DNA from: Flavobacteriales bacterium
GTDB lineage: Bacteria > Bacteroidota > Bacteroidia > UBA10329
Direction: 5' to 3'
Assembly: GCA_021739695.1 (NCBI GenBank)
Contig: JAIPBM010000006.1
Span: 124,001-188,000 of the forward strand
DNA length: 64,000 nt
Shown: positions 8,901 through 29,186 of the stretch, piece after piece
How positions within the stretch are numbered: position 1 is the first letter of the stretch
How the letters are laid out: each line of letters opens with the position of its first letter
The notes under the pieces: model-generated
What the model was told of the DNA's origin: nothing
The model's input: the letters and a program-made list of their open reading frames with translations, nothing else
Databases searched by the model: none
Made by a program: the position numbers and the translations under genes

Positions 8901-9314
8901 ATGTTTAAGAATTTCCTCCTCAAGGATTTCGTCTTCAATAAGCTGGAACTTAAGACCTGTTTTCGACTTAAACTGTGTAATGTAGTTTCTAGCGTTATCA
9001 TTCAACTTAGTTGGTGTAAAAAAGAAGACCGCTTTAACCTCCTTAATCACTGCCATAACTAAAGTCGGACTTAGCGTGTCAATGGAAATATTCGCTGATC
9101 GATTTTTACACTCTACCCAATATTCGTCTGTATAGAAAAACTCATCGGTTAATCCAATTTCAAAATCTCTCTTACCATCATGGGTTCTTCTCGTCCTCTT
9201 CCAATCTAGCTTAGGATGTTGTTTTGATAAGAGATCTTGGACGAGATCCTCAAACCGCTCTCCTTTATTTTCCGACATTAAAGGCTCCCAATCAGAATCC
9301 GTTAAGAACTTCAT
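5943..9314 (-). CDS. Mrr-like nuclease / AAA-STAND NTPase / TPR protein, candidate defence gene
   Basis: A 1123-residue protein with three parts. Residues 15-105 form a PD-(D/E)xK nuclease domain of Mrr type: Glu22 in GERFEDLVQDLL, Asp50 (KRDFEIG) and Glu68-x-Lys70 (WVECKNR). Residues 300-600 form an AAA_16/STAND-like ATPase: GRGRLEFLD at 302-310, Walker A GRSGTGKSR at 329-337 and Walker B FAFVIDN at 434-440. The remaining roughly 450 residues are helical with TPR-like repeats (for example about residues 870-1000). Nuclease-NTPase-repeat proteins are the plan of Avs/STAND antiphage sensors, where the repeats sense and the nuclease kills. It is shorter than typical Avs proteins. It is convergent with the phosphotransferase gene. 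Confidence 0.8.
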   Translation of the reverse strand: MKFLTDSDWEPLMSENKGERFEDLVQDLLSKQHPKLDWKRTRRTHDGKRDFEIGLTDEFFYTDEYWVECKNRSANISIDTLSPTLVMAVIKEVKAVFFFTPTKLNDNARNYITQFKSKTGLKFQLIEDEILEEEILKHDSILKQYFPGISIENRSRNFGTKQELQYRINLQRDVSYDYSSKTIVTQLQNKNAALNVNETFCIDVFVSNKTDADRAAILFLKPNEFKRHFSCLSEQLKRDHWKVDIRIDKASIEFHRFVFKLEQYHKTIPLPKVYSICEDGTEVELSLGNINCSWVISTPIIGRGRLEFLDIIQNETVGINKGRIFTYYGRSGTGKSRLLKETNDVLLSNNFRIVSVDGDFQASESSGFQVLKKWISEVVGLPQTEILAGTSNSKKQLTGHTNKLIRALYEDSFLSDNLSIVIDDLVEKISNSKFAFVIDNVQFFNEDIGAILNELIRKSVGKTSGICLVLSFNTDFVIEQSHIGTLFNLVREKGIARTNFVFDFEVLDFSTADAEKFVSHCIPDLREKYPKTFAFALEGLDKSPLYIEQTLLHMFDLGVIRKRKDYFYIFDINGFHSLLKQLPPRIEGLFLLRWRFIQEQVESRKFEVLLKYLALLQQVSFSLLDELEIHLNKVRELVQLGFLDVTSTNQVVFRHQKLQTFFYETFFSSGVDQEICSRLLIITDKFNLKELYPSQWFIAKNTLDPLDSDVVSFGLDCLFEGKVARELKVTFSLKLFEAVKRFSSLWFGQISIIRAFTRICDEIKDYGTFSMAVTVYKQVYEIMSSDQKRFYSLGDDYFQFVIRYSNSFLSLHLDSSAHELLLSELDRLERFEFSEDAQRKRLKAAILNRLCVTYKSANYPEQAEIVGSESLKIASELQDHSLMIKNFIDIGYIYYKNRKKQTELLANWDEAWKMFLAAKDESVERRRVSAYFHRALTSLIRGKYDESLNYVEQGILWADIRMDVFNKIKLTMVKSLVFYLGKNHSNESPADYAQIAIDLCVRYSSNRSYWKSHYLLGKVTSDHSVKNESYLVALELLSTIIVDNRMEERYLYFFEDMAISLRQFSRLKSEDVDEKLQTCIRSKQVRSQVKRILNMDNERFAEFLYALEPKTNITDGRTSFPNP

Positions 9315-9437
9315 TTACAAGGTAATTGACAGTTATCGTTTATTGGTTTTCCTTATTCAAAACTTGAAGTTTGACCTAAGCAAACACATTGGCAAGGTAC
9401 ACTTCCCTTAATTCATTTCCTATGCTACAATACTGGC

Positions 9438-9764
9438 ATGGAAAAATTCCCAGAACAATTCAATTCAAACAAACCAGAAGTGGTACCAGTCCAAGCGATA
9501 ACTGTTCAAGATTTAAGCAAATTGGGGCCTGCGTTAGCAAAAGGTTTAAATGCAGCAATGGAAATCTTATTTACTGTAAGTTTTATTCACCCGAAAGCCG
9601 ATCAAAAATATTTGATTGATTCTCTCACAGATGGCGATGTCATTACTGAAGATCAAGCGCGGGATACGATTGAGAATCTTATCCAAAAGAAGATAATTGC
9701 TGAAAATCCTGATGGAACTTATAAAGCCCTTGTTAAAGTTAGACCCGAAGATGAGGCATCTTAA
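9438..9764 (+). CDS. Small hypothetical protein
   Basis: A 108-residue protein starting at ATG 9438; a shorter overlapping frame starting at 9389 looks like a shadow. The C-terminal half (ITEDQARDTIENLIQKKIIA, then a short NPDGTYK hairpin) has the shape of a winged helix, but I do not recognise a family. There is no signal peptide or membrane segment. It diverges from the nuclease-NTPase gene with a 123-bp gap and ends just before a terminator shared with the methyltransferase gene. It might be a regulator or partner of the defence gene, but this rests on position only. Confidence 0.6.
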   Translation: MEKFPEQFNSNKPEVVPVQAITVQDLSKLGPALAKGLNAAMEILFTVSFIHPKADQKYLIDSLTDGDVITEDQARDTIENLIQKKIIAENPDGTYKALVKVRPEDEAS

Positions 9765-15849: not shown

Positions 15850-16695
15850 TCATCGTTCGATGTCCATTTCCCTATCGTCATTGTCTTCTCGCAGCTGTTC
15901 TAGTTGCTTTAATCGGTCATTCTGAATATCCAACTGTTCGAATTGTTCCTTTCCGATTCGCAATCTGGAGAATCGCATCTTCTTTTCATCTTCCCCAAAA
16001 TACACACCCATGAGCTTTCCACCATGGTCATACGTTCTCAGTCCCATTTCTTCGAGTTGTTGCTTGAACTCTTTGGTGTTACCTGAAAGTCGGAACAGAC
16101 GCTGAACGGTCATTGCGAGTTCATCTTTCGTCAGTGTCAGAAGTGGGTTTCTTTTCTGTTTATAGTAGGCTTTTTCTGAGTGCAAACGCTTGCCATAATT
16201 GGACATATCGATACCGATGGTCAGTTCTGGATGGTGTTCCTGCATGTAGAGGATCATTTCCTGTTGTACGGCTCTTAGCTGTCCCTTCGTCTGGCGGGTG
16301 GATGTTTTTGACATAAGTTCGTTTCCGCTGATGATCAGGTGGCTATGCCGATGGTCCTGTTTCATATGGTGACATCCGAAGACAATTGCTTTTGGAAAAG
16401 CGGTTTCGATGTAATGTCTGGACAGGTCGTCCATTATCTCCATCGTGACCTTATCACGGTCAATCGGGTTTACGGATAATATGACGTGCTTGGCCTTGTT
16501 CTTTATTCTGTTGCTGGCATGGTTAGCAAAGTTGGTTTGCAGTTGGGTGGCAATCGACCGTTGGTCGGTGCGATTAAGATTATGAAAAATACCCTGCTCA
16601 TGATGGTCCTTTATCCGCCCATCATCGGAAGCAATGTAGTTGACCACATTTGAAATGGCGTTGTAACTCTTAAGTTGAATGACCTTGATTATCAT
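15850..16695 (-). CDS. Relaxase (MobA/VirD2-type mobilization nuclease)
   Basis: A 281-residue relaxase. The metal-binding motif is clear: HH at 109-110, then HRHSHLIISG (His115, His117, His119). The N-terminus, VIQLKSYNAISNVVNYIASDDG, has Tyr11 and Tyr20 as candidate catalytic tyrosines. It would nick one strand at oriT and pilot it through a conjugation channel. It is short compared with large conjugative relaxases, as is usual for mobilizable elements. It overlaps the MobC gene by 26 bp and follows the coupling protein, forming one leftward transfer operon. Confidence 0.9.
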   Translation of the reverse strand: MIIKVIQLKSYNAISNVVNYIASDDGRIKDHHEQGIFHNLNRTDQRSIATQLQTNFANHASNRIKNKAKHVILSVNPIDRDKVTMEIMDDLSRHYIETAFPKAIVFGCHHMKQDHRHSHLIISGNELMSKTSTRQTKGQLRAVQQEMILYMQEHHPELTIGIDMSNYGKRLHSEKAYYKQKRNPLLTLTKDELAMTVQRLFRLSGNTKEFKQQLEEMGLRTYDHGGKLMGVYFGEDEKKMRFSRLRIGKEQFEQLDIQNDRLKQLEQLREDNDDREMDIER

Positions 16696-17143
16696 ACGTG
16701 TTGAGCCATGCTGTCAATCTGCCAACCTCATCCGGGTGTTGCTCCAAATACTGTTTGAGCACTTCGAAAATGCTGGGTGGAAGGGTTATTGTTTCAATGA
16801 CGGTTTCCTCCAATTGCTTTAGAAGTTCTTGCATTTGCTGAAAGCCTTTCAGATCGAGCTCCCTGCGGGAATTTGCAAACCTGACGGTCTGGTTCAGGTT
16901 ATTCCCAATTTTTTTGAACTCATAGACCATCTGTTCGAGTTTGCCATCATCGGGCAGTACATATCCATTGCCTTCCATGTCGGCCTTTATGAGTGCCTTT
17001 ATGAGCTCTGGAACCGAGAATCCGGTGCTTTTGGCATGGTTGAGAACCTTTTCCGCTTCCACTTTGGGAAGGGACACCGAGAACGTACGGTGACGTTTGC
17101 GGTATTCCTGTTTGCGTTCGGTGTCCTTACTCATGTCAGGCAT
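16670..17143 (-). CDS. MobC-like relaxosome protein
   Basis: A 157-residue protein with a ribbon-helix-helix-like N-terminus (RTFSVSLPKVEAEKVLNHAK) and the hallmark KKIGNNLNQ at 77-85 of MobC/BfmC-type accessory proteins. The rest is helical (MQELLKQLEETVIETI). MobC binds near oriT and helps the relaxase open the strands. It overlaps the coupling protein gene by 8 bp and the relaxase gene by 26 bp, so the three are translationally linked. Confidence 0.87.
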   Translation of the reverse strand: MPDMSKDTERKQEYRKRHRTFSVSLPKVEAEKVLNHAKSTGFSVPELIKALIKADMEGNGYVLPDDGKLEQMVYEFKKIGNNLNQTVRFANSRRELDLKGFQQMQELLKQLEETVIETITLPPSIFEVLKQYLEQHPDEVGRLTAWLNTYDNQGHST

Positions 17144-18593
17144 GTTCCATTACATGTTGCTTTTTGGCGGCTATTAATTGGTCAATGTCCATCAGATTGA
17201 GTTCTGATGGAACTTTGCCTTTGAAGGGTGCTGGGGGAAGCTCGCTTATCTTCCGCATCGACCTGTCTTTGAAATACGGCTTTACCTTGACCTTGGCAGG
17301 TCTGTGAGACCCAGCGACCAGCATCGCTTCGCTCTTTTCAAGGTGTATCAGTTCTGATCGGGTCAGAATTTCCCGCTGGCCTCGACCTTTGCCATCTTTA
17401 CGCTCGAAGCTCCATTTGCCTAATCGCTGTTCGAGCTCCGTTGCCAAACTCATCTCCATTCCTGGAAAGATCAGCTTGCTCCAACAGTTGTTCTTGATGG
17501 TGTTGGCATCATGCTGACCGTATCGTTCTTCCAATTGGGAGAGCGTCTGGATACAGCTCATTGCCGAAACATCGTACTTCCGTAAATTTGCCAACGCTTC
17601 CGGAAACCCTTTCACCGTAAAAGATCCCATCTCATCCGCCAATATGTTGATCGGCAAATCTCCATCTTTAGGCATCTCTTTCATGAACGCTCGGAACATG
17701 AACGTGAACAGCATCTCATAGATGAACGAGTGGTAATCGGACATAACATCCGTGAAGATGTAGAGTGCTTTTTTCTGCTTTCGGAACGCTGAAAAGTCAA
17801 TGGTGTTTACCGAAGTACAAAGAGCCAGTTCATCATCGGCAAAGGCTTTCAACGCACTTTGAATACTGCTCAGAATATTTTTGAGAACTTTCGGATCCTG
17901 AGCAATGAATGCCTTGTAATCGCTGTAGAGCCTATCATCACCATACAGCACGCAGAGCTTATCGACCTTGGTGCCTGACATCAATTCGTCATTCAACCGT
18001 TTGAGATTGACCGGATTGTGGTAGATTTTTGGGAGACACTTCAGCAGTCGTGTTTCTATCGACAGTCCAATGGATGCCGCTGAAGGCCAGAAGATATCCT
18101 TGGACGCTTTCATCTGTCTTGCCATGAGCATCTCCGCGAGCATGTTTATTTCGGTTGACGTATTGGCCAGTTCAATAGGATTGAAGCCTTCTGAAATTCG
18201 ATGGTCATTAGGCGAGAAAACCATGACCTCGGCTCCATGCTTTGCCCATTGTCCTGAACTTTTGGTATGTCCTTCGCGAGCGGGGTCAAGGAATATCATC
18301 GAGCAGTCCTCACTTCCAAATTTTATCGCACTGGGAAGTAACGTTGATACGGTCTTTCCTGAACCCGTATTTCCAATGACCAGGGCGTGCATGCGGGAAT
18401 GTTCTCTGCTGATTCTACCTGACCCGATATAGAAACCTGTTAGCCACGGTTTTATCAATCTGAACGGATTGAGCAGGTTATCATCATAATCTTGCTTGCG
18501 CTTCTCTTTCGTCAACTCTACCACCAGGGCAATTCCGATGAACAGGACGGCCAAGTGCCAGAGTTTGGGTGTATATGCGTATAAATAGTCCAT
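17136..18593 (-). CDS. Type IV coupling protein (VirD4/TraG-like)
   Basis: A 485-residue ATPase. One membrane segment near residues 10-27 is followed by ALVIGNTGSGKT (Walker A 74-81), the Walker B region INILADEMGSF, and a CIQTLSQLEERYG segment typical of TraG/TraD/VirD4. It would link the relaxosome to a type IV secretion channel. There are no channel genes in this window, so the element must borrow one. It is smaller than conjugative TraG proteins (often 600-700 residues), as seen in mobilizable elements that carry their own coupling protein. Confidence 0.9.
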   Translation of the reverse strand: MDYLYAYTPKLWHLAVLFIGIALVVELTKEKRKQDYDDNLLNPFRLIKPWLTGFYIGSGRISREHSRMHALVIGNTGSGKTVSTLLPSAIKFGSEDCSMIFLDPAREGHTKSSGQWAKHGAEVMVFSPNDHRISEGFNPIELANTSTEINMLAEMLMARQMKASKDIFWPSAASIGLSIETRLLKCLPKIYHNPVNLKRLNDELMSGTKVDKLCVLYGDDRLYSDYKAFIAQDPKVLKNILSSIQSALKAFADDELALCTSVNTIDFSAFRKQKKALYIFTDVMSDYHSFIYEMLFTFMFRAFMKEMPKDGDLPINILADEMGSFTVKGFPEALANLRKYDVSAMSCIQTLSQLEERYGQHDANTIKNNCWSKLIFPGMEMSLATELEQRLGKWSFERKDGKGRGQREILTRSELIHLEKSEAMLVAGSHRPAKVKVKPYFKDRSMRKISELPPAPFKGKVPSELNLMDIDQLIAAKKQHVMEHA

Positions 18594-18605: not shown

Positions 18606-18758
18606 TTAGTCGAGTATCAATCTGATGAGGTTCTCAATGGAATTCAGGACAAAGGCCAGTAATCGTAGCATTGCTGTGAACAGCCAGAGGATGAGCCGTC
18701 CGGTCAGTTTGAATACTGACCAGACGGCTTCCCAAAATGTGTTTCCGCTAGCTGCCAT
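18606..18758 (-). CDS. Small membrane protein
   Basis: About 50 residues from the ATG at 18758, which overlaps the upstream stop by 11 bp; longer starts at 18788 and 18806 would overlap more. The core (VFKLTGRLILWLFTAMLRLL, then a second hydrophobic stretch) is an amphipathic or membrane helix. It sits between the vWA-like membrane protein and the coupling protein in the same leftward operon, so a role in the transfer complex is possible. No family is recognised. Confidence 0.55.
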   Translation of the reverse strand: MAASGNTFWEAVWSVFKLTGRLILWLFTAMLRLLAFVLNSIENLIRLILD

Positions 18759-19524
18759 GGTTTCCGTTTCCTTGGTTGATGGCTCCATGAATGTGAACTT
18801 CTGCACCGAGTTCGGTCAGTCGGGCTCTGAGGTAGTTCGCCCGTAATCGGTATGCAGCATCTTCATTCGAATCCTTCGGTCTGTGAATCAGATGGACAAC
18901 TATGCCTGAAAGGTTCTTCAACTTCCTTGCGCCATCAAATCGGTTCCAGAGAACCTTATCATTGAATTCCAATTTCACGCTGGTATCGAAATCCGATATC
19001 CAATTGTCTCTTGGCGTGTTCTGACCGAGATCCGAATACACGTACACATATCGGTCGTCATTCGGAAATTTCTCAAGGTGGATAAGCTCTTGTATCAGCG
19101 GTTCCATGACGGCCGAATGGTCGTATCCTGTCTGTTGCTCAGCGAGCTTTGACAGTTCCTCGGAAACGGTGGCCTCCAATTTCTTGACACGGCTTTTTCT
19201 GAACAGTTCATTGTCGTCCAAAGCCCAAGTAGATGGGGCACCCCAGTCCCGAAAGGTCGGGAGGGTCAGTACCGTCAGGTCTTCGACCGCAACGTCTGTT
19301 ATCCTTCTCAGTCGTACTTCTCTTCCCTGTTTGAATGCATCCCATGAGAACTCCTGCTCATCGAATTGGAATGTCTGTTGGATTTTGAACGTATCAGTTC
19401 TATCCAGCAAAAGAGTTGCCCTATAAACGGGACGCTGTGGTGCGTTATACAGGTTCAAATAAGCCAATACTCCTGCTGTCAGGATGATGGCCATGCTTAA
19501 TACTATAATCGTTACTTTTCTCAT
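18748..19524 (-). CDS. Membrane-anchored vWA-like protein of the transfer operon
   Basis: A 258-residue protein with one N-terminal membrane anchor (VTIIVLSMAIILTAGVLAYL). The soluble part has a Rossmann-like layout resembling vWA domains: RATLLLDRTDTF at the position of the MIDAS strand, RYVYVYSDLGQNT later, and LSGIVVHLIHRP. The classical DxSxS is replaced by DRTDT, so metal binding is uncertain. Similar proteins occur beside mobilization genes in Bacteroidota, where their role is unclear. It overlaps the upstream membrane protein by 4 bp and belongs to the same operon. Confidence 0.65.
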   Translation of the reverse strand: MRKVTIIVLSMAIILTAGVLAYLNLYNAPQRPVYRATLLLDRTDTFKIQQTFQFDEQEFSWDAFKQGREVRLRRITDVAVEDLTVLTLPTFRDWGAPSTWALDDNELFRKSRVKKLEATVSEELSKLAEQQTGYDHSAVMEPLIQELIHLEKFPNDDRYVYVYSDLGQNTPRDNWISDFDTSVKLEFNDKVLWNRFDGARKLKNLSGIVVHLIHRPKDSNEDAAYRLRANYLRARLTELGAEVHIHGAINQGNGNHGS

Positions 19525-20624
19525 GATCTTGGTTCTTTTATGTTATTGTTTTTGTTTTCGAATTCATCGTGTAAAGGCGGTATATCGGTCACGAACACCC
19601 CTGATCCCTGACTGCCATGTGGTCGTCTGGAATTGTAGATGCTCTGATATTTATTGACCGTCCCTTTATAATGGTCTGCCAGATACTTCTGAAGTGACCT
19701 TGCATTGTCCATCGAGATAAGACGTGAGCCCAATCGGTTGCTTCGCTCGTTTTCGACCGCTTTTATCTCAGATATGATGTCCTTCTTTTTAGCTTCAAGC
19801 TCATCGAATTGGACGAAAACCTTGTTCTCTTCGGTAAGCTGCATTTGTTTCGCTCTGACCTCCTCAGCGAGGAATTCCGCGACCCATGCCGTGAGTGAAA
19901 AAAAGAAGGACAGGAATGCCAAAATGATAGGTCCGTAAAGTGAACCTCCATCCTGTGCCTGTAGGTAGGCGTGTCTTGAGAAGCCCAGAAAAGCGGCCAC
20001 AACTCCGTAGGTGAACAGGCCGACAGAAACCCATGCCCATTTTTCCTGCTTCGTTGTTGCATTACGGATTCGCTTGTTTAGGAATTTGGACAGAAAGTAT
20101 TTTCCTCCATTGAGCAACGCTGCCCAGAAGTAGGAAATTAGCCCGGATCCCCCTGCCGCACGTAAAGCGGGTGCCTCAAAAAGCACGTCCAGACCTAGAA
20201 GAATGAACGGTGCTTTAAGCAGCACTTGTTCATACGTTGACAATGGAGTTGGTCGCGGAATGCCATTGGCTGGATGTGCAGCAACTTCCTTTTGAACTTC
20301 ACCCAGATCCAACCTCAGTTCATTGAGTTGTTGCGTGAACTGCTTTGCCTCATGGTTGCCCAGTAACCCTTGTGAACGTGGGTTGAGGGCAATGTCAATG
20401 TCGGGAAGCAGTTCTCTGTACTGTTGACGCAGGTCTTCGATATTCACTTTGAACTCGGGAATGGTCAACGGTTCCTCACGCTGACTGCGGATCTGGGCAT
20501 CGATCTCCGATGCACTGCGTATCCTGTTGGCTTTGGTCTCAAGTTCTCCCTTGAGGTTCAGATACCCAGCCATGTCGGGCATGGTCGTGGTCGATAATCC
20601 GGTATTCTGTTGTATTGCTGTCAT
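19521..20624 (-). CDS. Multi-pass membrane protein with coiled coils, transfer operon
   Basis: A 367-residue protein: a soluble helical N-terminal region (1-130), about four hydrophobic segments between 130 and 250 (APFILLGLDVLFEAPAL, GLISYFWAALLNGG, AWVSVGLFTYGVVAAFLGFS, GPIILAFLSFFFSLTAWVAE), then a charged coiled coil (FDELEAKKKDIISEIKAVEN). No catalytic motif is seen. It is the first gene of the leftward operon that leads into the coupling protein, MobC and relaxase, with a 4-bp overlap to the next. It may be an integral part of a transfer or regulatory complex; the function is unknown. Confidence 0.7.
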   Translation of the reverse strand: MTAIQQNTGLSTTTMPDMAGYLNLKGELETKANRIRSASEIDAQIRSQREEPLTIPEFKVNIEDLRQQYRELLPDIDIALNPRSQGLLGNHEAKQFTQQLNELRLDLGEVQKEVAAHPANGIPRPTPLSTYEQVLLKAPFILLGLDVLFEAPALRAAGGSGLISYFWAALLNGGKYFLSKFLNKRIRNATTKQEKWAWVSVGLFTYGVVAAFLGFSRHAYLQAQDGGSLYGPIILAFLSFFFSLTAWVAEFLAEEVRAKQMQLTEENKVFVQFDELEAKKKDIISEIKAVENERSNRLGSRLISMDNARSLQKYLADHYKGTVNKYQSIYNSRRPHGSQGSGVFVTDIPPLHDEFENKNNNIKEPRS

Positions 20625-20833: not shown

Positions 20834-21184
20834 TCACCTTTCTCGTTTTTCAAGATTCCAAACGACACTATAGTAGATGGGAGATTGACCTAGCGCAAGT
20901 CTCAGGTCATTGTCCGTCATCCTTTCCTTATCAACTGGAATACTGATGTTCTTGTCGGTTACTGGATTGCGAAAGAGAGCACTTCTTGCCGTTCGGTATT
21001 TCTCCCTGTAACCGTAGTCGGTGAGTTTTTTCCTGACCTGACTAGTCTGGTAGCTTTTGAGTATTGTTTCCATTAGACCTGCTCTTTGGTAAATACGATG
21101 CATGCCTAAAGCCATCAATAGTGCCAAGTGGAGTTGAACACAATCAATTATCAACAACGCTAAATCAATACCGCATTCAAACAA
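20834..21184 (-). CDS. Hypothetical basic protein, start uncertain
   Basis: Up to 116 residues. Only the part from about 21073 (METILKSYQTSQVRKKLTDY) looks protein-like throughout, so the true product may be about 79 residues. It contains GYREKYRTARSALFRNP and NDLRLALGQSPIYYSVVWN, with no motif I can name. It lies between the transfer operon and the RtcR-like regulator and is divergent from the latter; the inverted repeat at 21262-21298 lies in that divergent gap. The 209 bp on its other side (20625-20833) show nothing notable. Confidence 0.4.
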   Translation of the reverse strand: MFECGIDLALLIIDCVQLHLALLMALGMHRIYQRAGLMETILKSYQTSQVRKKLTDYGYREKYRTARSALFRNPVTDKNISIPVDKERMTDNDLRLALGQSPIYYSVVWNLEKRER

Positions 21185-21261: not shown

Positions 21262-21298
21262 TAATCAATAAATGATGTCATCTATCATTTATTGATTA
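21262..21298. repeat. Perfect 15-bp inverted repeat upstream of the RtcR-like gene
   Basis: TAATCAATAAATGAT and its exact reverse complement ATCATTTATTGATTA flank a 7-bp spacer (GTCATCT). The centre lies about 38 bp before the ATG at 21318. It is AT-rich and lacks a following T-run, so it looks more like an operator than a terminator. Confidence 0.7.
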
Positions 21299-21317: not shown

Positions 21318-22739
21318 ATGAAAAAAGTATTGATTTCTTGGATGGCCAAGGAGAATGATTTCGATAAAGAGAGTGGAGCGGTCAGGTCTAATGGCCCCAC
21401 ATGTTCAATACATCAACACCATTATCAATATGACGAGCACATCCTGCTTACCTCGTCTAAAAGTTCGTCTGAAGATATTCGGTACCAGCATCTTGTAACC
21501 TACTTGAGGCGTTCTTTCGGCAATCAGATTGTTGAATGTGCCATGGGAATTAATGACGTGATAGACCTGAGTGAAATACTTGCGAAGGTTACAAGTCTTC
21601 TCTTGAAGTATCGCAATAGTGAGATTACCGTTTTCATATCTCCGGGCACTCCATCAATGCAAGTGGCCTGGTATCTCTCCCATTATAGTTTGGGACTTAA
21701 TATGAAACTCTTCCAAATGCGTAGACCTGAACATAGCGAAAACGCTATTCCTAAACAGATATGGGTTAAAATGGAGTTGTCGTCCTACATTTCCTCTGCT
21801 ATAATCAGACAAGATGAGTTGGACAAGAAATTCCCTTCCGCCCATATTATAACAGGGATCTTGAAGCCCATTTATGCCAAAGCTGAGCGAATAGCTTCCA
21901 CTGATCAGGTCCGAGTTCTGATACTAGGAGATACAGGAACAGGAAAAGAACAAGTCGCTCGGTTTATTCATGACAACTCACCAAGGAAGCAGAAGGCGTT
22001 CATAAAGGTGAATTGTTCAGCCATAGGTGATAATCTTTTGGAAAGCAGGCTGTTCGGTTACGTAAAGGGTGCCTTTACAGGTGCTGACAAGAATGAAGAT
22101 GGGATTTTTCATGCCTCGGATGGCGGAACAGTCTTCCTTGACGAGATTGGAGACATCAGTCCGTACATGCAACAATCTCTATTGCGATTCCTTCAAGAAG
22201 GAGAAATACAGCGGGTCGGTTCATCTAGACCCGAAAAAGTGAACGTCCGAGTATTGACTGCAACCAATCGTGACCTATACGCAAAGTCCAGCAATGGCAG
22301 CTTTCGTCAGGACCTGTATTACAGGTTGTCAGTTTGTGAGTTAATCATGCCATCATTGAGGTCGTATCCTCTGAGTGAAAAGGAGGAAATTTTCACCCAC
22401 ATATGGAGAAAGTCAGTTCAAATTCTAGGTAAACGTGCTCCAAAACTGCCAAGCCCATTGAAAAGAACATTAATAGAACACACTTACCCTGGGAATTTCA
22501 GAGAGTTAGAAAATACTCTTTTAGGGATAATTGCAGAAAGCTCTGACATTGTGCGAAAAGAAAATATTCCTAGAAGAATTCTTCAGCCAATTGGCACCGA
22601 CTCAGTCAAACTCGAGGAGGTGGTAAAATCACATATAAAAATGGTTTATTTAGAATACGGTGAAAATGCGGTTCGAACGGCACGTGCTTTAGGTGTCAGT
22701 GTTAACACTGTAAAGAAAAAATTAGGCGAGGCTCGGTAA
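21318..22739 (+). CDS. RtcR-like sigma54-dependent activator with CARF-like sensor domain
   Basis: A 473-residue regulator. Residues 1-185 match the RtcR N-terminal (CARF-type) layout, with NGPTCSIHQHHYQYDEHILL early and VFISPGTPSMQVAWYLSHY later. Residues 190-420 are a sigma54-interacting AAA+ domain: GDTGTGKE (204-211) is Walker A, GAFTGA (251-256) is the sigma54-contact loop and is intact, and GGTVFLDEIGD is Walker B. The C-terminus (about 452-472) is a Fis-type helix-turn-helix. It should switch on a sigma54 promoter on binding a nucleotide or RNA-derived ligand. It converges with the four-gene operon, its stop 2 bp from that operon's end. Confidence 0.85.
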   Translation: MKKVLISWMAKENDFDKESGAVRSNGPTCSIHQHHYQYDEHILLTSSKSSSEDIRYQHLVTYLRRSFGNQIVECAMGINDVIDLSEILAKVTSLLLKYRNSEITVFISPGTPSMQVAWYLSHYSLGLNMKLFQMRRPEHSENAIPKQIWVKMELSSYISSAIIRQDELDKKFPSAHIITGILKPIYAKAERIASTDQVRVLILGDTGTGKEQVARFIHDNSPRKQKAFIKVNCSAIGDNLLESRLFGYVKGAFTGADKNEDGIFHASDGGTVFLDEIGDISPYMQQSLLRFLQEGEIQRVGSSRPEKVNVRVLTATNRDLYAKSSNGSFRQDLYYRLSVCELIMPSLRSYPLSEKEEIFTHIWRKSVQILGKRAPKLPSPLKRTLIEHTYPGNFRELENTLLGIIAESSDIVRKENIPRRILQPIGTDSVKLEEVVKSHIKMVYLEYGENAVRTARALGVSVNTVKKKLGEAR

Positions 22740-22741
22740 AT

Positions 22742-24319
22742 CTATACGGCTATCTCCTTCAAAGCATCAACGACAAACTTTAAATCAATGGCCTCACTAG
22801 GTAAATGCTCCTGATGCGCTTTTGTCCTATTTAAAAGAAAATCGGCATAGCGACCCTCAGCATTCTTAAGTTGGAACCACCTGTCATCTTCAACATTTGT
22901 AACTTTGTCCGATAGTTTTATCCACACTTCCTCGGGAACGGTAGGTCCGTTGTTAATCGCTTTCGAGTTAATCGTTTTGTCGTTTAAAATCATAACACCA
23001 AACCCATTATTTCCTCCTGAAGTATAATCTGCATTAATCAAAGCCTTAACAGCAGTAGCTACATTAGGATAATGAGGATTTGTCACTTCCACATTGTACA
23101 CTACCAAAGGCGAGTCGTAATTCAACGTACGATTTCTGGTGTCTGATTCCCGTTGTTTAGGAACGAAGTTCTTTTCAGTAATCTCAACCTTTTCAACCCA
23201 CCCGAAACGCGCTTGGTGTTTTCCCTTTTCCACAGTTACGGACTTAATGTCATCGGTGATTTCACGGAATGTGACCTGATTTTGAAACAGAACTTGCCAG
23301 AGATGCATCATAACAAAGTTAGCCACCGGCACTCCCCAGCATTTGTACAATGAATAGCACACATAGTGTACTATTAGATTTTGTGGCTTTATCTTATTTC
23401 CTTCATCGTCCTTCCAAATCGCATTATCGATTGTTTTATGATTCCCAACCTTGTAATTGTGAAAAAACATTCCTGCTACGGATTTAAAGGCCTTTGATTC
23501 CCCCTGAAGAAGAGTTTTCTTTACAAAATAATCCAGACTACCCTTCGCACTTCGTTCCATGTCCGTCTTTTGCCTGTCGTTCAATTCCCCGAGGGGAAGT
23601 AGTTTATTTTCGTAGCAGAAAATAACGGCAATCACGCAAGCGTCAACAATTGCCCTTTTCCAATTTTCCGTTAAATACTTTGTCGTAGGCTCAGCCGACA
23701 AATCATCTCCTCCTAAGAAGAATGGAATGTCATGCATGCTTGAGATAATATTCTTAATGTTGTAGGTATGGGCACCTGCATGTGAGTCAGAATAGTTTAC
23801 CTCATCCAGAACAGTTTGAATTGAGCTTGGAAGCTCTCCAGAATAGAATGCTTCCGCTACTAGTTGACTACATGACGGCTTCGTTCTGGTTCCATCCGCG
23901 TGATGCTCATCATAGAACGCCAACGCTTTTGCACCACCAGACTCATCTGCATGAATACCAAATACAACTCCCGAAGACCATGACATTCTAGCGTACGAAT
24001 CGTCCTCAGCAGACATAAGTACATGATCGGAAACCTCTATGTCTTTCAAATGGGGCGGGAGGATTGCTCGAAAGAATAATTCAGCAAAATATTCATCCAA
24101 ATGCGCATTCTTGTGAATAATGGTTCGCTTAAGTTTTGTCGTTTTCTGCGTATCAAACCTAGTCAGCTTTGTCTTATCATGTTTTTCAAGCACTTTGTAC
24201 AAATACTGAGCGCTTGCATATGTGATAGCATTAAGAATTCCGCCTTTTTCAGAAATAAGATCCTCACATAACAGAATTCTATTAGCATTGATTATCGATG
24301 TCCTTTCTTGCTGATTCAT
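22742..24319 (-). CDS. MYG1/DHH-like phosphoesterase candidate, putative effector
   Basis: A 525-residue protein. Its N-terminal third has features of the MYG1-type branch of DHH-like phosphoesterases: IIHKNAHLDEYFAELFFRA (His73, Asp75), a GVVFGIHADESGG stretch, and FYDEHHADG (residues 135-143) aligned with the DHH motif, followed by SCSQLVAEAF. The C-terminus (NNGFGVMILN, VPEEVWIKLSD) could be the matching substrate domain. If so it would cleave phosphodiester bonds in nucleic acid or nucleotides. The assignment is from motif reading only. It ends an operon with PP2C, kinase and vWA genes, overlapping the PP2C gene by 4 bp. Confidence 0.55.
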   Translation of the reverse strand: MNQQERTSIINANRILLCEDLISEKGGILNAITYASAQYLYKVLEKHDKTKLTRFDTQKTTKLKRTIIHKNAHLDEYFAELFFRAILPPHLKDIEVSDHVLMSAEDDSYARMSWSSGVVFGIHADESGGAKALAFYDEHHADGTRTKPSCSQLVAEAFYSGELPSSIQTVLDEVNYSDSHAGAHTYNIKNIISSMHDIPFFLGGDDLSAEPTTKYLTENWKRAIVDACVIAVIFCYENKLLPLGELNDRQKTDMERSAKGSLDYFVKKTLLQGESKAFKSVAGMFFHNYKVGNHKTIDNAIWKDDEGNKIKPQNLIVHYVCYSLYKCWGVPVANFVMMHLWQVLFQNQVTFREITDDIKSVTVEKGKHQARFGWVEKVEITEKNFVPKQRESDTRNRTLNYDSPLVVYNVEVTNPHYPNVATAVKALINADYTSGGNNGFGVMILNDKTINSKAINNGPTVPEEVWIKLSDKVTNVEDDRWFQLKNAEGRYADFLLNRTKAHQEHLPSEAIDLKFVVDALKEIAV

Positions 24320-25188
24320 GTTTTCTTATCAGTATTAGTTCTAATAACAGAAATAAAAGTTGCATCATCGGTAGGCCAATCACGCCCTTCCTTCTTCTTC
24401 AGCACCTCCTTAACAACCCTTTTTTGAAATTCTCTCCTTCTATCTTGAAACCCATTCTTTAATCCTACTATTTTCGAGTCAAAAAAGAAAGAGCCGAACT
24501 CTGGAGTTTCCAATACATCCGTGTCTAGAAGGCCATCCGTGGCAATAAGTAGACTATCCAGATTCTTTGTATTCCCACTACCTACTATTTTCATTGATAC
24601 CAAAGCTTCCTCATCTCCACTATTGAATTCAACGAAATTGTTGGATAAGTATTTCCCAGAAGAACTAGTTACCGTCATCCGATTCCCGTTGATAAAGACA
24701 TCACCATCACCACAATTAAGAATGACGTAATATTTCTCTGTGATAACAAAAACCGTCAGAGTGGATGACATCAGATTATTCAAAAACTGTTTCCTTTCAA
24801 ACTTCCAAGGGTGTACTGCGTTGATGGTTCGAGCTAACCGATAATTTATAAGTCTCTCAAACTCTAATGGAAAACCAGCCAGCGAAACTTTATTCTTCAA
24901 AACAATCCTGCGTGCAATTCGGACACCAAGAAAACTAAGGAAATAGGCACCTACCTGATTGAACGAGTGACCATTGAGATTTGTCCCACTCGTACAACCG
25001 TCAGCGATAGTTCCTACTAGAAGTCTTTTTCCAATATAGATGCTTGCAGAATCCTGATTTCCGATACTACTTTCTTTATGCATCAATCCTTCCTGGCTCA
25101 TCCCAAATACCGAAAACGACAATCCAGTGCTATTGTCCGAATCCGTAAGAAAATCTACGTTGTACTCAAAAGGCCCCATCATATTCAA
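24316..25188 (-). CDS. PP2C-type protein phosphatase
   Basis: A 290-residue protein of the PPM/PP2C fold. It shows NQDSASI (Asp46), IADGCTSGTN (Asp63-Gly64), the TDGLLDTD strand and TDDATFISV near the end, the metal-binding aspartates expected of the family. It would remove phosphates from Ser/Thr, most simply reversing the adjacent kinase-like protein. There is no signal peptide or membrane segment. It overlaps the kinase gene and the MYG1-like gene by 4 bp each (ATGA-type junctions), so the products are made together. Confidence 0.82.
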   Translation of the reverse strand: MNMMGPFEYNVDFLTDSDNSTGLSFSVFGMSQEGLMHKESSIGNQDSASIYIGKRLLVGTIADGCTSGTNLNGHSFNQVGAYFLSFLGVRIARRIVLKNKVSLAGFPLEFERLINYRLARTINAVHPWKFERKQFLNNLMSSTLTVFVITEKYYVILNCGDGDVFINGNRMTVTSSSGKYLSNNFVEFNSGDEEALVSMKIVGSGNTKNLDSLLIATDGLLDTDVLETPEFGSFFFDSKIVGLKNGFQDRRREFQKRVVKEVLKKKEGRDWPTDDATFISVIRTNTDKKT

Positions 25189-26249
25189 GGTATCTTAAGT
25201 CCGTACTGATCCATGAATAACTTTACTTCTTCTGGGTCGTTCTTGTCCTGACCTAAAAGCTCGAATTCATTTTCCGATGACTTTATCTTCCTTCTTTGAA
25301 TATAAACGGTGCTTCTTGGACCATGGTAATAATATTTGCGTTCACCTTTTACAAAAACATCTTCGAAGTACTTGAAAATGTCAGGGCAATTCTCCGATAA
25401 GTACTGAAGCCTGTCAGACACAGCATCGAATAAAGGATTGCGTTCAATGTTCAAACCTGAGTTCTCAATTTTAGATTGGTTTTTGAGAACGAAGTCAAGC
25501 CAACTAACCCCTAAGTTCTTTTTGTAATCGGTATCTGTCGGGTCTGTTGTCTGATAAAAATGCGGCTTTACCCCCACTAGTAGCTCAAAAGCAACCACGG
25601 CCATAGCATAGATATCACTATCAGTATTATACAGGAAAAACCTTGCTCGACCTTTGCCATCAGTCTTGACGGTTGGATCAACATATTCTTTGCGTCTTGT
25701 AGTACTGAAAAATCCACCAACCTGTACAGAGTCAAAATCCACAAGTACCGGAGCCAAGGTTTGTTCATTTATCAATATGTTTTCTGGGTTAATATCCCCT
25801 ACGACAACCCCGACCTTATGAAAAACCTCCAAATAGTGATTTAGCGCATGCACGATGGAAAGCAGGTTTTCATCAACCAAGTTCGTTCTTCCATAAGAAA
25901 GCCCATTGCTGGAATATTTGATGTCATTAAGATCTAAATGGTTGGGATAATAACGCATCATAAACCCACAGAAGTGTTTAGTTCCAACTTCGTAGACAGG
26001 AGCTTCAGGAAAAGCTACGAAATTTTCAATTCCCAATAGGAACTTTTGATTTCTGTTAATCAGCGTAATAACCTTTCGTTCATTAAATGCTGTTCTCTTG
26101 TCTGGATTATAAACCTTAACGCACTTGACAACACCCTCAACATTAGTTGTCCATAATTCCCCTTCACCACCGAACTTTCCAGTGCTAGTTAATTGTCTTT
26201 TTTCTTTGTTGATTATTACCTCCATGGATTTACTATGTATTCTTTGCAT
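25185..26249 (-). CDS. Ser/Thr protein-kinase-like protein of TerY-P type
   Basis: A 354-residue protein. The glycine-rich loop GKFGGEGELW lies at 24-33 with a Lys about 12 residues on (VVKCVKV). The catalytic loop reads VVGDINPENIL (Asp152, Asn157) instead of HRD, and the metal site reads LVDFDSVQ (Asp171) instead of DFG. The GDxNPxN and DFDSxQ forms are what I recall for kinases of the TerY-P triad. It likely phosphorylates a partner, perhaps the vWA protein. The ATG at 26249 overlaps the vWA gene by 17 bp; an ATG at 26225 would leave a short gap and is equally possible. Confidence 0.82.
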   Translation of the reverse strand: MQRIHSKSMEVIINKEKRQLTSTGKFGGEGELWTTNVEGVVKCVKVYNPDKRTAFNERKVITLINRNQKFLLGIENFVAFPEAPVYEVGTKHFCGFMMRYYPNHLDLNDIKYSSNGLSYGRTNLVDENLLSIVHALNHYLEVFHKVGVVVGDINPENILINEQTLAPVLVDFDSVQVGGFFSTTRRKEYVDPTVKTDGKGRARFFLYNTDSDIYAMAVVAFELLVGVKPHFYQTTDPTDTDYKKNLGVSWLDFVLKNQSKIENSGLNIERNPLFDAVSDRLQYLSENCPDIFKYFEDVFVKGERKYYYHGPRSTVYIQRRKIKSSENEFELLGQDKNDPEEVKLFMDQYGLKIP

Positions 26250-27492
26250 TCGTAGAGAAGAGTTGAAAGGCCCTTCTGATTGATTCAGCGTCAGTATTGT
26301 CTATCGAAATTGACTCGTTGAAATTCAGTTCTTCCCGTATTGATTCCAATTTGTCGTTTGAAAATTCACTTCCTGTAAGACCTATCAATACGCTTGAAAC
26401 GAGAAACGATTTTTTATTATCTCTGCTCCTTAACTCTTCAAGCCTTTTTCGGATTTGATTGACTTTAGCAATTTTCTTACTCGCATAAGCCTCGGGGCTT
26501 TTGGAAACTTCTATACCGTCTGTAATCGTATCCTCTCCATCAGTTATGACACCGATAGAAACCTTATCGATTCGTTTATGGCTTTCTTCAACCTCCCGAA
26601 GCTCATTGTACACTACTCTCAGGGATTCATCAATCGTATCATAAAGAGCGGTCATTCCACCTGGTCGGTATCCCTCGCCACCTAGAGTGACAACCTTGTC
26701 AGACCCTTCCATTGCCTCCAAATACTCGGGCGGATTGATAAGGTGCTTACGACTATCAAATGTGTATTGATATATCTTCAAGTAGCCATCTTTGCATATT
26801 GCGCTACCTCGAAGTGCTTGCAATGCTTTCTTATGGGCTTCACCAATTGCCAACCTCAATCGTGCCACAGCATTCTTATAATCCTGTGAATCCCATTTAT
26901 CCCAATTTGATTGATCATCGAGAAACGGCCAGATCATAGACTGGGAACTATCAATCAAGAGAATCACGCAATATTCCTCTCGCTCTATGTATCTACGTTC
27001 TCGTCTTTCAGGTACTACTTTAAAAAGCGGTTGTAAAGCCTCGCGTTCTGAATTTGACAGGTTCGTTATAGAAACCAAAGAGTACCTCCGATAATTCGTC
27101 AAGTACCATTCCATAACTATTTGAAGCCCCAGCATTAATTGCTGAAACTCTCGTTCGATAAGCTCAAAATCATCCTTATAAGTATTCCAATTCCTTTTTT
27201 CAGTAATATCTCCAATGTTTTTTCTCACCTTTTGTAAGATTCCACTTCTAAAAGTGTATTTATTCGTTTGCTTGTTTTTTGAAGAAAAGAATTCCTTCTT
27301 ATCAACAGTATACAAGGGTGACCTAAAGTCAGAGGAAGATTTATCAATATGAAACTCATGTATACAGATGCTTTGCATCAAACTGATAACGGCGTCCCTA
27401 GCGTCTCGAAGGGCATCGGTAGGTTCTCTACTGACTCCAATAGCTTTACAGTATTCCCTCACTGCTTTCAGTTCATATGAATTTAACTCCAT
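26233..27492 (-). CDS. vWA-domain protein (TerY-like), first gene of the operon
   Basis: A 419-residue protein. The first 160 residues are helical and unassigned. From about 172 comes a vWA domain: CVILLIDSSQSM with the MIDAS DSSQS at 181-185, a GEGYRPGGMTALYDTI stretch bearing the MIDAS threonine, and VSIGVITDGEDT. vWA domains bind partners through a metal ion. Together with a kinase and PP2C it forms the triad seen beside tellurite-resistance and other stress and conflict genes. It starts the leftward operon; the 151 bp upstream contain no convincing GG-N10-GC sigma54 promoter that I could see. Confidence 0.83.
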   Translation of the reverse strand: MELNSYELKAVREYCKAIGVSREPTDALRDARDAVISLMQSICIHEFHIDKSSSDFRSPLYTVDKKEFFSSKNKQTNKYTFRSGILQKVRKNIGDITEKRNWNTYKDDFELIEREFQQLMLGLQIVMEWYLTNYRRYSLVSITNLSNSEREALQPLFKVVPERRERRYIEREEYCVILLIDSSQSMIWPFLDDQSNWDKWDSQDYKNAVARLRLAIGEAHKKALQALRGSAICKDGYLKIYQYTFDSRKHLINPPEYLEAMEGSDKVVTLGGEGYRPGGMTALYDTIDESLRVVYNELREVEESHKRIDKVSIGVITDGEDTITDGIEVSKSPEAYASKKIAKVNQIRKRLEELRSRDNKKSFLVSSVLIGLTGSEFSNDKLESIREELNFNESISIDNTDAESIRRAFQLFSTNAKNT

Positions 27493-27643
27493 GGCAAAAA
27501 TTGAATATTAGAACAACGCAAAAGCAAGTTAGCATTATTAAATCAAGATTCAGGCTGGAGAGACTTAACATCAGTAAGATATCAAGGCACCGACTACTAA
27601 TTGGTAATAGAGTTTGAATCGTTTTTGGTGTATCAGTGATGGG

Positions 27644-28993
27644 CTAATTCCCAGTAATCAGCTCATTGAGCCGAACATCTAGGCTCGATTTCTTATGACG
27701 TTCTTCGAAATATACCCTTGTAATACCAGGATGCCCATGACCCAAACCTTTTCCGATTATTTCTTCGGAAACATTTGCATCAAGAGCAGCATTAACCCAT
27801 CCGTACCTTGCGTCATACGTGGTTATCTTCTTCCCTATTCCTGCCATTCCAGCAAGCATTTCAAGATTGCTGTTTTGCTTCTTTAATGCCCTTCTTCGTC
27901 TATTACGCTCAGTGACTTTGGTATTTGATGATTTTGTTTTTGCGTTGATGGCTCGAATACCGTTGTTCACTTGCTCTACATCATAAATATCAAAAGCAAG
28001 GTCATGCGGATTCTTGCCTCGCGTGAAGTATTCCCAAATGCTTGCTGCTTCTCTGGTGAGAGCGACATCAATCCGTTTGTTCTTTCGCTTTCGGATGGTT
28101 TTGGTTCGTTCGTAGGAAATGAACTGCCCCACTCTATCTGACACGAGAAGTTTAGCTAAATCAACAAAGTTCATTCCTTGGCAATTAAACATGAAGAGAA
28201 AGCGGGCACGGGCTTTCCAGAGGTCAGATCCTTGTTCTAATTCAAGTCTTCTCAGGTTTGCTATATCAGTTGAAGAAATGGAATCAACCTCTTTGGTTTC
28301 GTACGGAATACCAACGATTCGGAAGGGTTGAAAATCAGAAGGAACAAAGTTTCTTTTCTCCTTTATTGACTGGTTTATTATTGCTCGAACCGCTCGCATG
28401 TATACACCTGTAGTATTGGGTTGCCAAAGACGTTTTACACCTTCAATTTCAGTTTCTGCCCAGACCTTGAATTCTTCTAAGAATTGCTCGTTGATTTCAA
28501 TGAGCGTGATGTCTTTCCCTTTATTGAATTTGATAAAGGCATGTATTCCGTCTCGATACCAACTGGCTTTGCCTACTCGGTTTGTTGCTAACGCACGACC
28601 AATGAGCAGCTGCCCCCAATTCTGAAGTGTTCCCTCGGTTGACTGTGTGTAACGGACTTTTTGGACCGTGTCCGCAGTAGTGTTTCCTCCCCTCTTTATA
28701 GCAATGGTGAGTTCGGTCTTAATATCTGAAATGTTCATTACTCGGAGCTCTAAAGCATTCGATTCCAAATAGATATTCGCTTTTTGAACGGTCGCCTCAA
28801 GACGACTTTGAAGACGTTTGTAGTTATCGATACCAGATACCGATTGTGCCTTTGCATTCCATTGCTTCGGTAGCAATCGTATATCAAGGGGAATTGTTCG
28901 TGTCTTACCTTTGTGTGCTACTTGAAGAACGAGTGGATAGGTGTCCGCGTTATCTGAATAACGCTTGTCTAGATGAAGTTTTACATGTGCCAT
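27644..28993 (-). CDS. Bacteroidota-type tyrosine integrase next to the tRNA attachment site
   Basis: A 449-residue integrase. It has an arm-binding domain (1-90, with RTIPLDIRLLPKQWNAKA), a SAM-like domain (about 120-220) and a catalytic domain. The LGHGHPGITRVYFEE motif at the end carries the His and the Tyr nucleophile. The first catalytic Arg position reads CQGMNFVDLAKL and the HxxR position reads TYDARYGW, as in the divergent GMxFVD group of Bacteroidota recombinases. Its 5' end lies about 150 bp from the tRNA-Asp 3' half, the usual layout for an integrase and its attachment site. It probably inserted the island. Confidence 0.88.
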   Translation of the reverse strand: MAHVKLHLDKRYSDNADTYPLVLQVAHKGKTRTIPLDIRLLPKQWNAKAQSVSGIDNYKRLQSRLEATVQKANIYLESNALELRVMNISDIKTELTIAIKRGGNTTADTVQKVRYTQSTEGTLQNWGQLLIGRALATNRVGKASWYRDGIHAFIKFNKGKDITLIEINEQFLEEFKVWAETEIEGVKRLWQPNTTGVYMRAVRAIINQSIKEKRNFVPSDFQPFRIVGIPYETKEVDSISSTDIANLRRLELEQGSDLWKARARFLFMFNCQGMNFVDLAKLLVSDRVGQFISYERTKTIRKRKNKRIDVALTREAASIWEYFTRGKNPHDLAFDIYDVEQVNNGIRAINAKTKSSNTKVTERNRRRRALKKQNSNLEMLAGMAGIGKKITTYDARYGWVNAALDANVSEEIIGKGLGHGHPGITRVYFEERHKKSSLDVRLNELITGN

Positions 28994-29142
28994 GAGTAGT
29001 GTTTTTTGCTACTCAAATTTGCGTGTATTTTGCGTGTATTGCTGGTTCAAAAAGGGCTAATTTGGGAAATGGTCAATTCACAAATTGTTGATAACCAGTC
29101 ATTTGGTATTAAATGGTTTCATATGAACACTAAAATTTCCTC

Positions 29143-29184
29143 CTGTCACGCAGGGGGTCGCGGGTTCGAGTCCCGTCCGGACCG
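29143..29184 (+). other. 3' half of a tRNA-Asp gene, probable island attachment site
   Basis: The sequence begins with the anticodon loop CTGTCAC (anticodon GTC, 29145-29147), then GCAGG, the T-arm CGGGTTCGAGTCCCG (29161-29175), the 3' acceptor strand CCGGACC and discriminator G. The D arm, 5' acceptor strand and 5' anticodon strand are absent upstream. It is a truncated copy, as left at one end of an element integrated into the 3' part of a tRNA gene. The intact tRNA-Asp should lie at the other end of the island, outside this window. Confidence 0.8.
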
Positions 29185-29186
29185 CT

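What the first reader, a model, noticed from the sequence alone, without database searches (positions are those of the whole stretch)
21318..27492. CARF-type RtcR-like activator facing a vWA-kinase-PP2C-MYG1-like operon
Seen: a sigma54 activator with an RtcR-like N-terminal domain, intact GAFTGA and Walker motifs, converging 2 bp from a four-gene operon whose genes overlap: vWA (DSSQS), kinase with GDINPEN and DFDSVQ, PP2C, and a 525-aa protein with DEHH. Known: vWA-kinase-PP2C sets form the TerY-P triad of stress and conflict systems, and RtcR CARF domains sense RNA-repair-type ligands. Inference: damage or infection makes a ligand, the activator turns on the operon, and reversible phosphorylation gates the DHH-like effector. 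I know of no described system with exactly this set.
Basis: partly seen in the sequence, partly recalled or inferred. Interest (0 to 1): 0.82.

Follow-up and report, generated by a model that had tools for sequence, protein, structure and literature searches.

The report
Rare phospho-switch cassette on defence island
Four overlapping bacterial genes (a vWA protein, a protein kinase, its opposing phosphatase and an unknown 525-residue protein) form a very rare cassette that is also found, in the same order, in a bacterium of another phylum; here it rides on a mobile island that also carries known anti-phage genes, and the transcription activator beside it is probably a separate defence regulator rather than a fixed part of the set.

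Summary
In detail: a CARF-AAA+-HTH sigma-54 activator (21318-22739, +) lies tail-to-tail, 2 bp apart, with four overlapping - strand genes: vWA, kinase, PP2C and a 525-aa protein.

The four genes are a genuine unit: one Anaerolineales MAG has all four in the same order at 42-49% identity. The activator is not part of it: no such CARF was found in that genome, and the stretches around five activator relatives lack the four genes but carry type I RM, type III-B CRISPR or BREX genes.

A paired operator-like motif with 20-bp spacing precedes the activator's own gene and those of two of the five relatives; none precedes the operon. Direct control of the operon is unsupported.

'MYG1/DHH' is only a motif-level lead: profile tests failed, the second H of DEHH is not conserved, folds were unusable.

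The locus is the integrase end of a ~49-kb tRNA-Asp island whose other end carries CBASS-NucC. Best reading: a TerY-P-like phospho-switch defence cassette with an undescribed effector, beside an independent CARF activator.

The parts
26233..27492 (-). vWA protein, 419 aa, MIDAS residues D181-x-S183-x-S185, T281, D318, with an N-terminal extension of about 170 aa
   Evidence: ORF; homologue in L038 at 49% identity with these residues conserved and without the extension; no Pfam family near cut-off; weak match to a phage family of unknown function (E 0.0019); 1 of 296 genomes of the phylum sample, its own
25185..26249 (-). Ser/Thr protein kinase, 354 aa, GDINPEN catalytic loop and DFD; no CxxC pairs by eye, so no zinc ribbon seen
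   Evidence: Pkinase 30.4 bits vs cut-off 31.7; homologue 42% identical with the motif residues kept, itself above the Pkinase cut-off
24316..25188 (-). PP2C-type phosphatase, 290 aa, aspartates D46, D63, D218, D274, D275 conserved
   Evidence: PP2C_2 41.6 bits; homologue 46% identical
22742..24319 (-). 525-aa protein of unknown fold, candidate effector; conserved H69-x3-H73-x-D75-E76, D137-E138-H139, D178
   Evidence: no Pfam, NCBIfam, PADLOC or PHROG match; homologue 46% identical in L038
21318..22739 (+). CARF-AAA+-HTH sigma-54 activator (RtcR_PspF2 type), convergent with the operon
   Evidence: PADLOC PDLC01995 399 bits, residues 2-470; Sigma54_activat 1e-62; NCBIfam RtcR over residues 1-407, 247 bits, far below its cut-off of 650
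21262..21298 (.). perfect 15-bp inverted repeat with 7-nt spacer; reads as two ATCAATnATTGAT-like sites exactly 20 bp apart (21264, 21284), candidate operator of the activator
   Evidence: the only such pair in the window; same pair and spacing upstream of the relatives in L039 and L040 (not in L072, L073, L074); 0 of 2000 shuffles in each of the three; motif derived from these same loci
27644..28993 (-). tyrosine integrase, 151 bp upstream of the operon on the same strand
   Evidence: Phage_int_SAM_5 and Arm-DNA-bind_5 over cut-off
29142..29185 (+). right end of the island: 44-bp 3' part of tRNA-Asp(GTC), exact direct repeat of G000:C6:104099-104142
   Evidence: intact tRNA-Asp at the left copy
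15850..18593 (-). mobilisation module of the island: relaxase (15850-16695) and T4SS-type coupling protein (17136-18593), with an ORF between them (16670-17143) that was not scanned
   Evidence: PF03432 (25.4 vs 24.6 bits) and PF02534; ORFs

Best explanation
The four - strand genes are a TerY-P-like phospho-switch defence cassette. Kinase and PP2C set the phosphorylation state of the vWA adaptor and/or of the 525-aa protein, which is the output enzyme, possibly a metal-dependent phosphoesterase or nuclease. Infection or damage flips the switch and frees the effector. The cassette is rare cargo at the integrase end of a ~49-kb mobilisable island that also carries CBASS. The neighbouring CARF-sigma-54 activator belongs to a regulator family that accompanies several different defence systems; it most likely controls itself and what lies divergent from it through its own paired operator. 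A regulatory tie to the cassette is possible but unproven. Shown: conserved gene order, conserved active-site residues, island ends, operator-like repeat, defence context. Inferred: anti-phage role, phospho-gating, effector chemistry, and what the activator controls.
For: Same four-gene order at 42-49% identity in a Chloroflexota MAG; vWA, kinase and PP2C active-site residues conserved in both. vWA-PP2C-kinase triads recur beside other modules on rhizobial plasmids, in CoCoNuTs as TerY-P, and as stand-alone antiphage TerY-P-like triads (PMC11090510 passages, citing Gao 2020, which I did not read). Island bounded by 44-bp tRNA-Asp repeats with CBASS cyclase, E1-E2, JAB and NucC at the far end. 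A caspase-domain gene about 140 bp downstream in the MAG. Five of 5 activator relatives with N-terminal identity of 35% or more to the window protein lie within about 5 kb of RM, type III-B CRISPR or BREX genes.
Against: Only two examples of the cassette were found, so co-occurrence cannot be tested statistically. No experiment shows defence. The 525-aa protein has no recognised fold or family. The kinase lacks the zinc ribbon of classical TerY-P. The MAG locus was not bounded as a mobile or defence island. Activator, operon and integrase share GC3 of 0.37-0.41, unlike the coupling protein and the two genes beside it (0.51-0.55), which would fit joint acquisition of activator and operon.
Confidence: 0.5

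Rival explanations
1. One reading: all five genes are one system, and the CARF activator senses a damage ligand and directly turns on the vWA-kinase-PP2C-effector operon from a sigma-54 promoter.
For: Adjacency and the 2-bp convergent junction; shared GC3 of activator and operon; RtcR homologues often precede TerY-P-containing Type II CoCoNuT operons (PMC11090510, passages); RpoN is present in the genome.
Against: No RtcR-type CARF found in the other genome that carries the operon (a three-sequence profile, and the MAG may be incomplete). The 14-20 kb stretches around 5 activator relatives lack the operon genes. No GG-N10-GC site in 27481-27760 and no operator-like site there. The activator is convergent, whereas 4 of 5 relatives are divergent from a defence or helicase-nuclease gene. 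Caveat: only 1 of 5 relatives (L039) shows a clear -24/-12 site, and 3 of 5 lack the exact operator pair, so absence of these sites is weak evidence.
Confidence: 0.18
2. The cassette is a stress or metal-response phospho-switch of the TerY-P type with no anti-phage role; its island setting is incidental.
For: TerY-P triads are linked to tellurite resistance and proposed metal sensing (stated in PMC11090510).
Against: No Ter genes were recognised among the neighbouring proteins scanned; no zinc ribbon on the kinase; the island carries CBASS-NucC.
Confidence: 0.15
3. The cassette serves the mobile element itself, for example gating integrase or excision by phosphorylation, since it lies directly downstream of the integrase on the same strand.
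For: 151-bp gap to the integrase on the same strand; same GC3 as the integrase.
Against: In the Chloroflexota MAG no integrase was recognised among the 12 proteins scanned around the operon.
Confidence: 0.12

Closest known systems
TerY-P triad (vWA + PP2C + Ser/Thr kinase) of Type II/III-A CoCoNuTs, and OB-fold TerY-P-like antiphage triads (both as described in PMC11090510; passages read)
   Same: the same three protein types in one operon, a proposed phosphorylation switch in defence loci; RtcR homologues are often found with Type II CoCoNuTs
   Different: kinase without zinc ribbon (by eye) or recognised OB-fold; no CoCoNuT core genes recognised among the neighbours scanned; a fourth, dedicated 525-aa protein; activator convergent, not leading a superoperon
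Actinobacterial GAP1-N2 conflict systems with linked kinase, PP2C and vWA genes (PMC7159879, one passage read)
   Same: kinase, PP2C and vWA genes side by side in a proposed conflict system
   Different: no GAP1-N2 GTPase recognised here; different phyla; [quoted passage not shown]
RtcR_PspF2 (CARF-AAA-HTH) family of PADLOC; RtcR-like proteins associated with restriction-modification systems (PMC4012209, passages read)
   Same: full-length profile match, 399 bits; defence-gene neighbourhoods in relatives
   Different: here the nearest operon is convergent and is not an RM system
RtcR of E. coli (PMC9650030, passages read)
   Same: CARF-AAA+-HTH order; NCBIfam RtcR alignment over residues 1-407
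   Different: below the RtcR cut-offs of NCBIfam and Pfam; no rtcBA-type gene recognised among the neighbours scanned; E. coli RtcR needs RtcA and RtcB, and oligoadenylates are not its signal
vWA-PP2C-kinase triads beside or near His-Xaa-Ser (Hxs) genes on Rhizobium and Sinorhizobium plasmids
   Same: three-gene triad; kinase 25-27% identical
   Different: gene order vWA-PP2C-kinase; Hxs genes near; no 525-aa relative in the stretches held
MYG1 exonuclease family (PF03690)
   Same: an HxxxHxDE-like segment and a later D-x-H in similar order, by eye
   Different: no significant profile match; D-E-H instead of DHH; about 200 residues longer

Membership tests
TerY-P triad | vWA domain with intact MIDAS (DxSxS..T..D) | tested here: met
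   residues invariant between window and L038; no profile-level support for the window protein and only E 0.07 for L038
TerY-P triad | PP2C-type phosphatase with metal ligands | tested here: met
   PP2C_2 over cut-off; D46, D63, D218, D274, D275 conserved; their role is from general knowledge
TerY-P triad | Ser/Thr kinase with catalytic motifs | tested here: met
   Pkinase just below cut-off in the window protein, above it in L038; motifs conserved
TerY-P triad | C-terminal zinc ribbon (or OB-fold) on the kinase | tested here: not met
   no CxxC pairs by eye; no domain found there; OB-fold not tested structurally. Filed as TerY-P-like only
RtcR_PspF2 (CARF-AAA-HTH) regulators | full-length profile match | tested here: met
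   PDLC01995, 399 bits, residues 2-470
RtcR_PspF2 (CARF-AAA-HTH) regulators | CARF fold of the N-terminal domain | tested here: inconclusive
   PADLOC CARF profiles match weakly (E 4e-4 and above); profile A5 finds proteins with Pfam RtcR over cut-off (2 checked, L049 and L050); against the PDB the best weak match is a hypothetical protein not labelled CARF (E 0.16), then Csm6' (0.17) and Card1 (0.28); no structure predicted
RtcR_PspF2 (CARF-AAA-HTH) regulators | divergent target operon with sigma-54 promoter (layout seen in relatives, not a formal criterion) | tested here: not met
   operon convergent, no -24/-12 site found; clear site in 1 of 5 relatives (L039)
MYG1 / DHH superfamily | significant profile similarity to MYG1 | tested here: not met
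   hhalign probability 0.6%, E 0.1, only the first motif aligned (variants); hmmsearch scores not above shuffles
MYG1 / DHH superfamily | conserved DHH motif | tested here: not met
   D-E-H-H in the window, D-E-H-G in L038
MYG1 / DHH superfamily | DHH fold | tested here: inconclusive
   two AlphaFold2 runs with mean pLDDT 40.9 and 38.7; no PDB match at E 0.001
CoCoNuT (Type II) | McrB/McrC-like and helicase/nuclease core genes with the triad | tested here: not met
   none recognised among the neighbouring proteins scanned

The most novel reading that the evidence does not exclude
The cassette is a new stand-alone antiphage system: a vWA-kinase-PP2C phospho-switch that licenses an enzyme of an undescribed family. 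On the same island, the CARF sigma-54 activator reads cyclic oligonucleotides made by the CBASS cyclases at the far end, so that one alarm molecule both triggers NucC and changes transcription. (Against the second half: E. coli RtcR does not respond to oligoadenylates, PMC9650030 passages. For it: one relative sits beside cas10.)
Probability: 0.12. Interest if true: 0.8.

Novelty: new variant of a known kind. Interest (0 to 1): 0.52.

Why it matters
If right, it adds a dedicated, previously undescribed effector to the vWA-kinase-PP2C switches, and two independent loci in different phyla give a minimal set for direct tests of phospho-gated defence. The CARF sigma-54 activators beside RM, type III-B CRISPR and BREX genes, with a shared paired operator in three of the six loci compared, make the target and ligand of this regulator family testable.

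Tried and rejected
MYG1/DHH assignment of the 525-aa protein: BLASTP against a recalled human MYG1 gave only chance-level pieces (best E 4.2). Pfam MYG1_exonuc was found in 0 of 148 genomes of the phylum sample, and its 14 controls were also silent, so that search shows nothing either way. Eight of the 73 plasmid records with a MYG1 match were fetched and aligned; profile-profile and shuffle tests were negative.

Structure: AlphaFold2 on the full-length protein and on residues 55-245 (2 sequences each) gave mean pLDDT 40.9 and 38.7.

PADLOC PDLC01995 over the phylum sample was swamped by AAA+ domains (296 of 296 genomes), so I used the N-terminal profile A5. It matched 13 of 296 genomes: the 3 strong ones (E below 1e-80) are the three sequences the profile was built from; 10 are weak (E 5.8e-9 to 1.7e-5), of which 3 were looked at (L049, L050: 332-aa proteins; L056: a 552-aa CARF-AAA protein). 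At the G124 place the ORF seen was an ordinary NtrC-type response regulator, and it was dropped. L056/L071 (25-30% identical) was not counted among the five relatives.

Relatives of the cassette were sought without success in viral contigs, plasmids and phages; a kinase search of plasmids gave 23 records of weakly similar kinases. Relatives of the activator's N-terminus: 3 plasmid records, no viral contig. The 367-aa protein beside the mobilisation genes had no plasmid match. Putative sigma-54 sites elsewhere in the island are at shuffle level.
Full report
What is there. One search confirms five ORFs at the given coordinates: a + strand activator (21318-22739) and, tail-to-tail at 2 bp, four - strand genes with overlaps of 4, 4 and 17 bp: vWA (26233-27492), kinase (25185-26249), PP2C (24316-25188), 525-aa protein (22742-24319). 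Pfam, NCBIfam and PADLOC support the activator; Pfam supports the PP2C, and the kinase just below its cut-off; they give nothing usable for the vWA and the 525-aa protein. The vWA assignment rests on the MIDAS pattern, conserved in the homologue, whose own Pfam VWA match is weak (E 0.07). Codon statistics agree that all five are coding (the training set included some of the same genes, so this is a weak check).

The four-gene unit. A scan of one genome for each of 84,980 species with the 525-aa protein confirmed 1 of 23 candidate stretches: an Anaerolineales (Chloroflexota) MAG, locus L038. That locus reads vWA (5236-6006), kinase (6029-7075), PP2C (7072-7959), 525-aa homologue (7962-9548): the same order, with genes that overlap or lie 2 to 22 bp apart. 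Identities are 49, 42, 46 and 46%. The MIDAS residues, the kinase GDINP-N and DFD motifs and the PP2C aspartates are invariant between the two. The L038 vWA lacks the N-terminal extension of about 170 residues. The unit is very rare. With the single 525-aa protein, 1 of 296 genomes of the phylum sample matched (its own); with the two-sequence profile, 1 of 201 and 1 of 396 genomes around the MAG (the MAG itself; these sets overlap in part) and 1 of 9 of its own family (its own). No match was found in 72,556 plasmid records, 50,697 phage records or viral contigs. The vWA matched 1 of 296 (its own). The genome-contig scan starts from short exact peptide seeds, so distant relatives may have been missed.

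The activator looks like a separate module. Its N-terminus is RtcR/CARF-type by profile: PADLOC RtcR_PspF2 over residues 2-470, 399 bits, although Pfam RtcR is below cut-off. A three-sequence profile of this domain found nothing in the MAG genome (its completeness is not told). In the 296-genome sample it matched 13, the three strong ones being the sequences it was built from. Five relatives with N-terminal identity of 35% or more to the window protein were read: L039 (type I RM with a TIR protein), L040 (HsdM-type and other N6 methylases), L072 (Aureispira plasmid, divergent type III-B CRISPR genes with cas10), L073 (Hymenobacter plasmid, RM genes 4.7 kb downstream on the same strand), L074 (Hymenobacter plasmid, BREX-1 genes 3.7 kb upstream and a divergent UvrD/PDDEXK helicase). 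In the 14-20 kb stretches held, none contains a relative of the vWA, kinase, PP2C or 525-aa protein (tblastn E 1e-3). [quoted passage not shown]

Wiring. A perfect 15-bp inverted repeat ends 19 bp before the activator's start codon. Read as two ATCAATnATTGAT-like sites, it has the same 20-bp spacing as pairs upstream of the activators in L039 and L040. Each is the only such pair in its locus, and 0 of 2000 dinucleotide shuffles of each of these three upstream regions reproduce it. The motif was derived from these same loci, so the shuffle figure is optimistic; L072 has one similar site without its partner, and L073 and L074 have no pair. In L039 a sigma-54 promoter matching the consensus at every scored position (TGGCACTGGGCTTGCA) lies between this operator and the divergent hsdM. 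In the window neither the operator nor any GG-N10-GC site was found in 27481-27760, upstream of vWA. Because only one of five relatives shows a clear -24/-12 site and only two of five the operator pair, these absences are weak evidence; the convergent layout and the MAG without a detected activator add to them. RpoN is present in the genome, so the activator can work. Against my reading, activator, operon and integrase share GC3 of 0.37-0.41, while the coupling protein and the two genes beside it have 0.51-0.55, which would fit joint acquisition.

The island. A 44-bp 3' part of tRNA-Asp is repeated exactly at contig positions 104099-104142 and 153142-153185, with an intact tRNA-Asp(GTC) at the left copy and the integrase (window 27644-28993) next to the right copy. 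This bounds an element of about 49 kb with relaxase and coupling protein. Its left end carries a CBASS set: cyclase, E1-E2, JAB, NucC and a second cyclase. An HD-CE/HATPase protein, an Upx-related protein and a protein with an Mrr-type domain lie on the same element.

The 525-aa protein. By eye its HxxxHxDE and D-E-H segments recall MYG1 and the DHH superfamily (a recalled lead). Tests did not support membership: hhalign against eight MYG1 proteins gave probability 0.6%, hmmsearch scores were not above shuffles, the second H of DEHH is G in the homologue, and both AlphaFold2 models are unusable. I keep 'metal-dependent phosphoesterase or nuclease' only as a guess from the conserved H/D/E residues.

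Mechanism and verdict. The most likely reading is a TerY-P-like phospho-switch in which kinase and phosphatase set the state of vWA and effector until a trigger releases the effector. Gene order and active-site residues are shown; gating, trigger and effector chemistry are inferred. The zinc ribbon that marks classical TerY-P kinases was not seen, so I file it as TerY-P-like, a new variant of a known kind. For the bolder idea that the activator reads CBASS-made cyclic oligonucleotides, one relative lies beside cas10, but E. coli RtcR does not respond to oligoadenylates (PMC9650030, passages). Literature searches for this combination listed no paper that I could recognise as describing the four-gene set; I read passages of five papers only. 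Most subscription papers, including the 2020 CARF survey, are not held, so a description there cannot be excluded.

Noticed in passing
L048:3888-8441 (G000:C6, left end of the island, outside the window): CBASS-type set with two cyclases of the same PADLOC family (315 and 262 aa) flanking E1-E2, JAB and NucC; why two cyclases is unexplained.
   Followed up: partly
L072:6827-9443 (Aureispira plasmid NZ_CP133672.1): A CARF sigma-54 activator divergent from a type III-B CRISPR operon starting with cmr1-cas10; a candidate cOA-responsive transcriptional loop.
   Followed up: partly
L039:9937-10039: A sigma-54 promoter matching the consensus plus a paired operator between an RtcR_PspF2 gene and a divergent type I RM operon with a TIR-domain protein.
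   Followed up: yes
L038:9688-10968: Caspase (Peptidase_C14) plus Lcl_C protein about 140 bp downstream of the four-gene operon in the Chloroflexota MAG, possibly a fifth member there.
   Followed up: no
window 5943-9314: 1123-aa protein with an Mrr-type nuclease domain and a sub-threshold AAA match, a probable defence gene on the same island.
   Followed up: partly
window 18748-20624 and 20834-21184: Divergent from the activator: 367-aa and 258-aa proteins and a doubtful 116-aa ORF without recognised families; they would be the activator's natural divergent targets.
   Followed up: partly
L034, L035, L036: vWA-PP2C-kinase triads next to or near His-Xaa-Ser (hxsABC) genes on rhizobial plasmids.
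   Followed up: no
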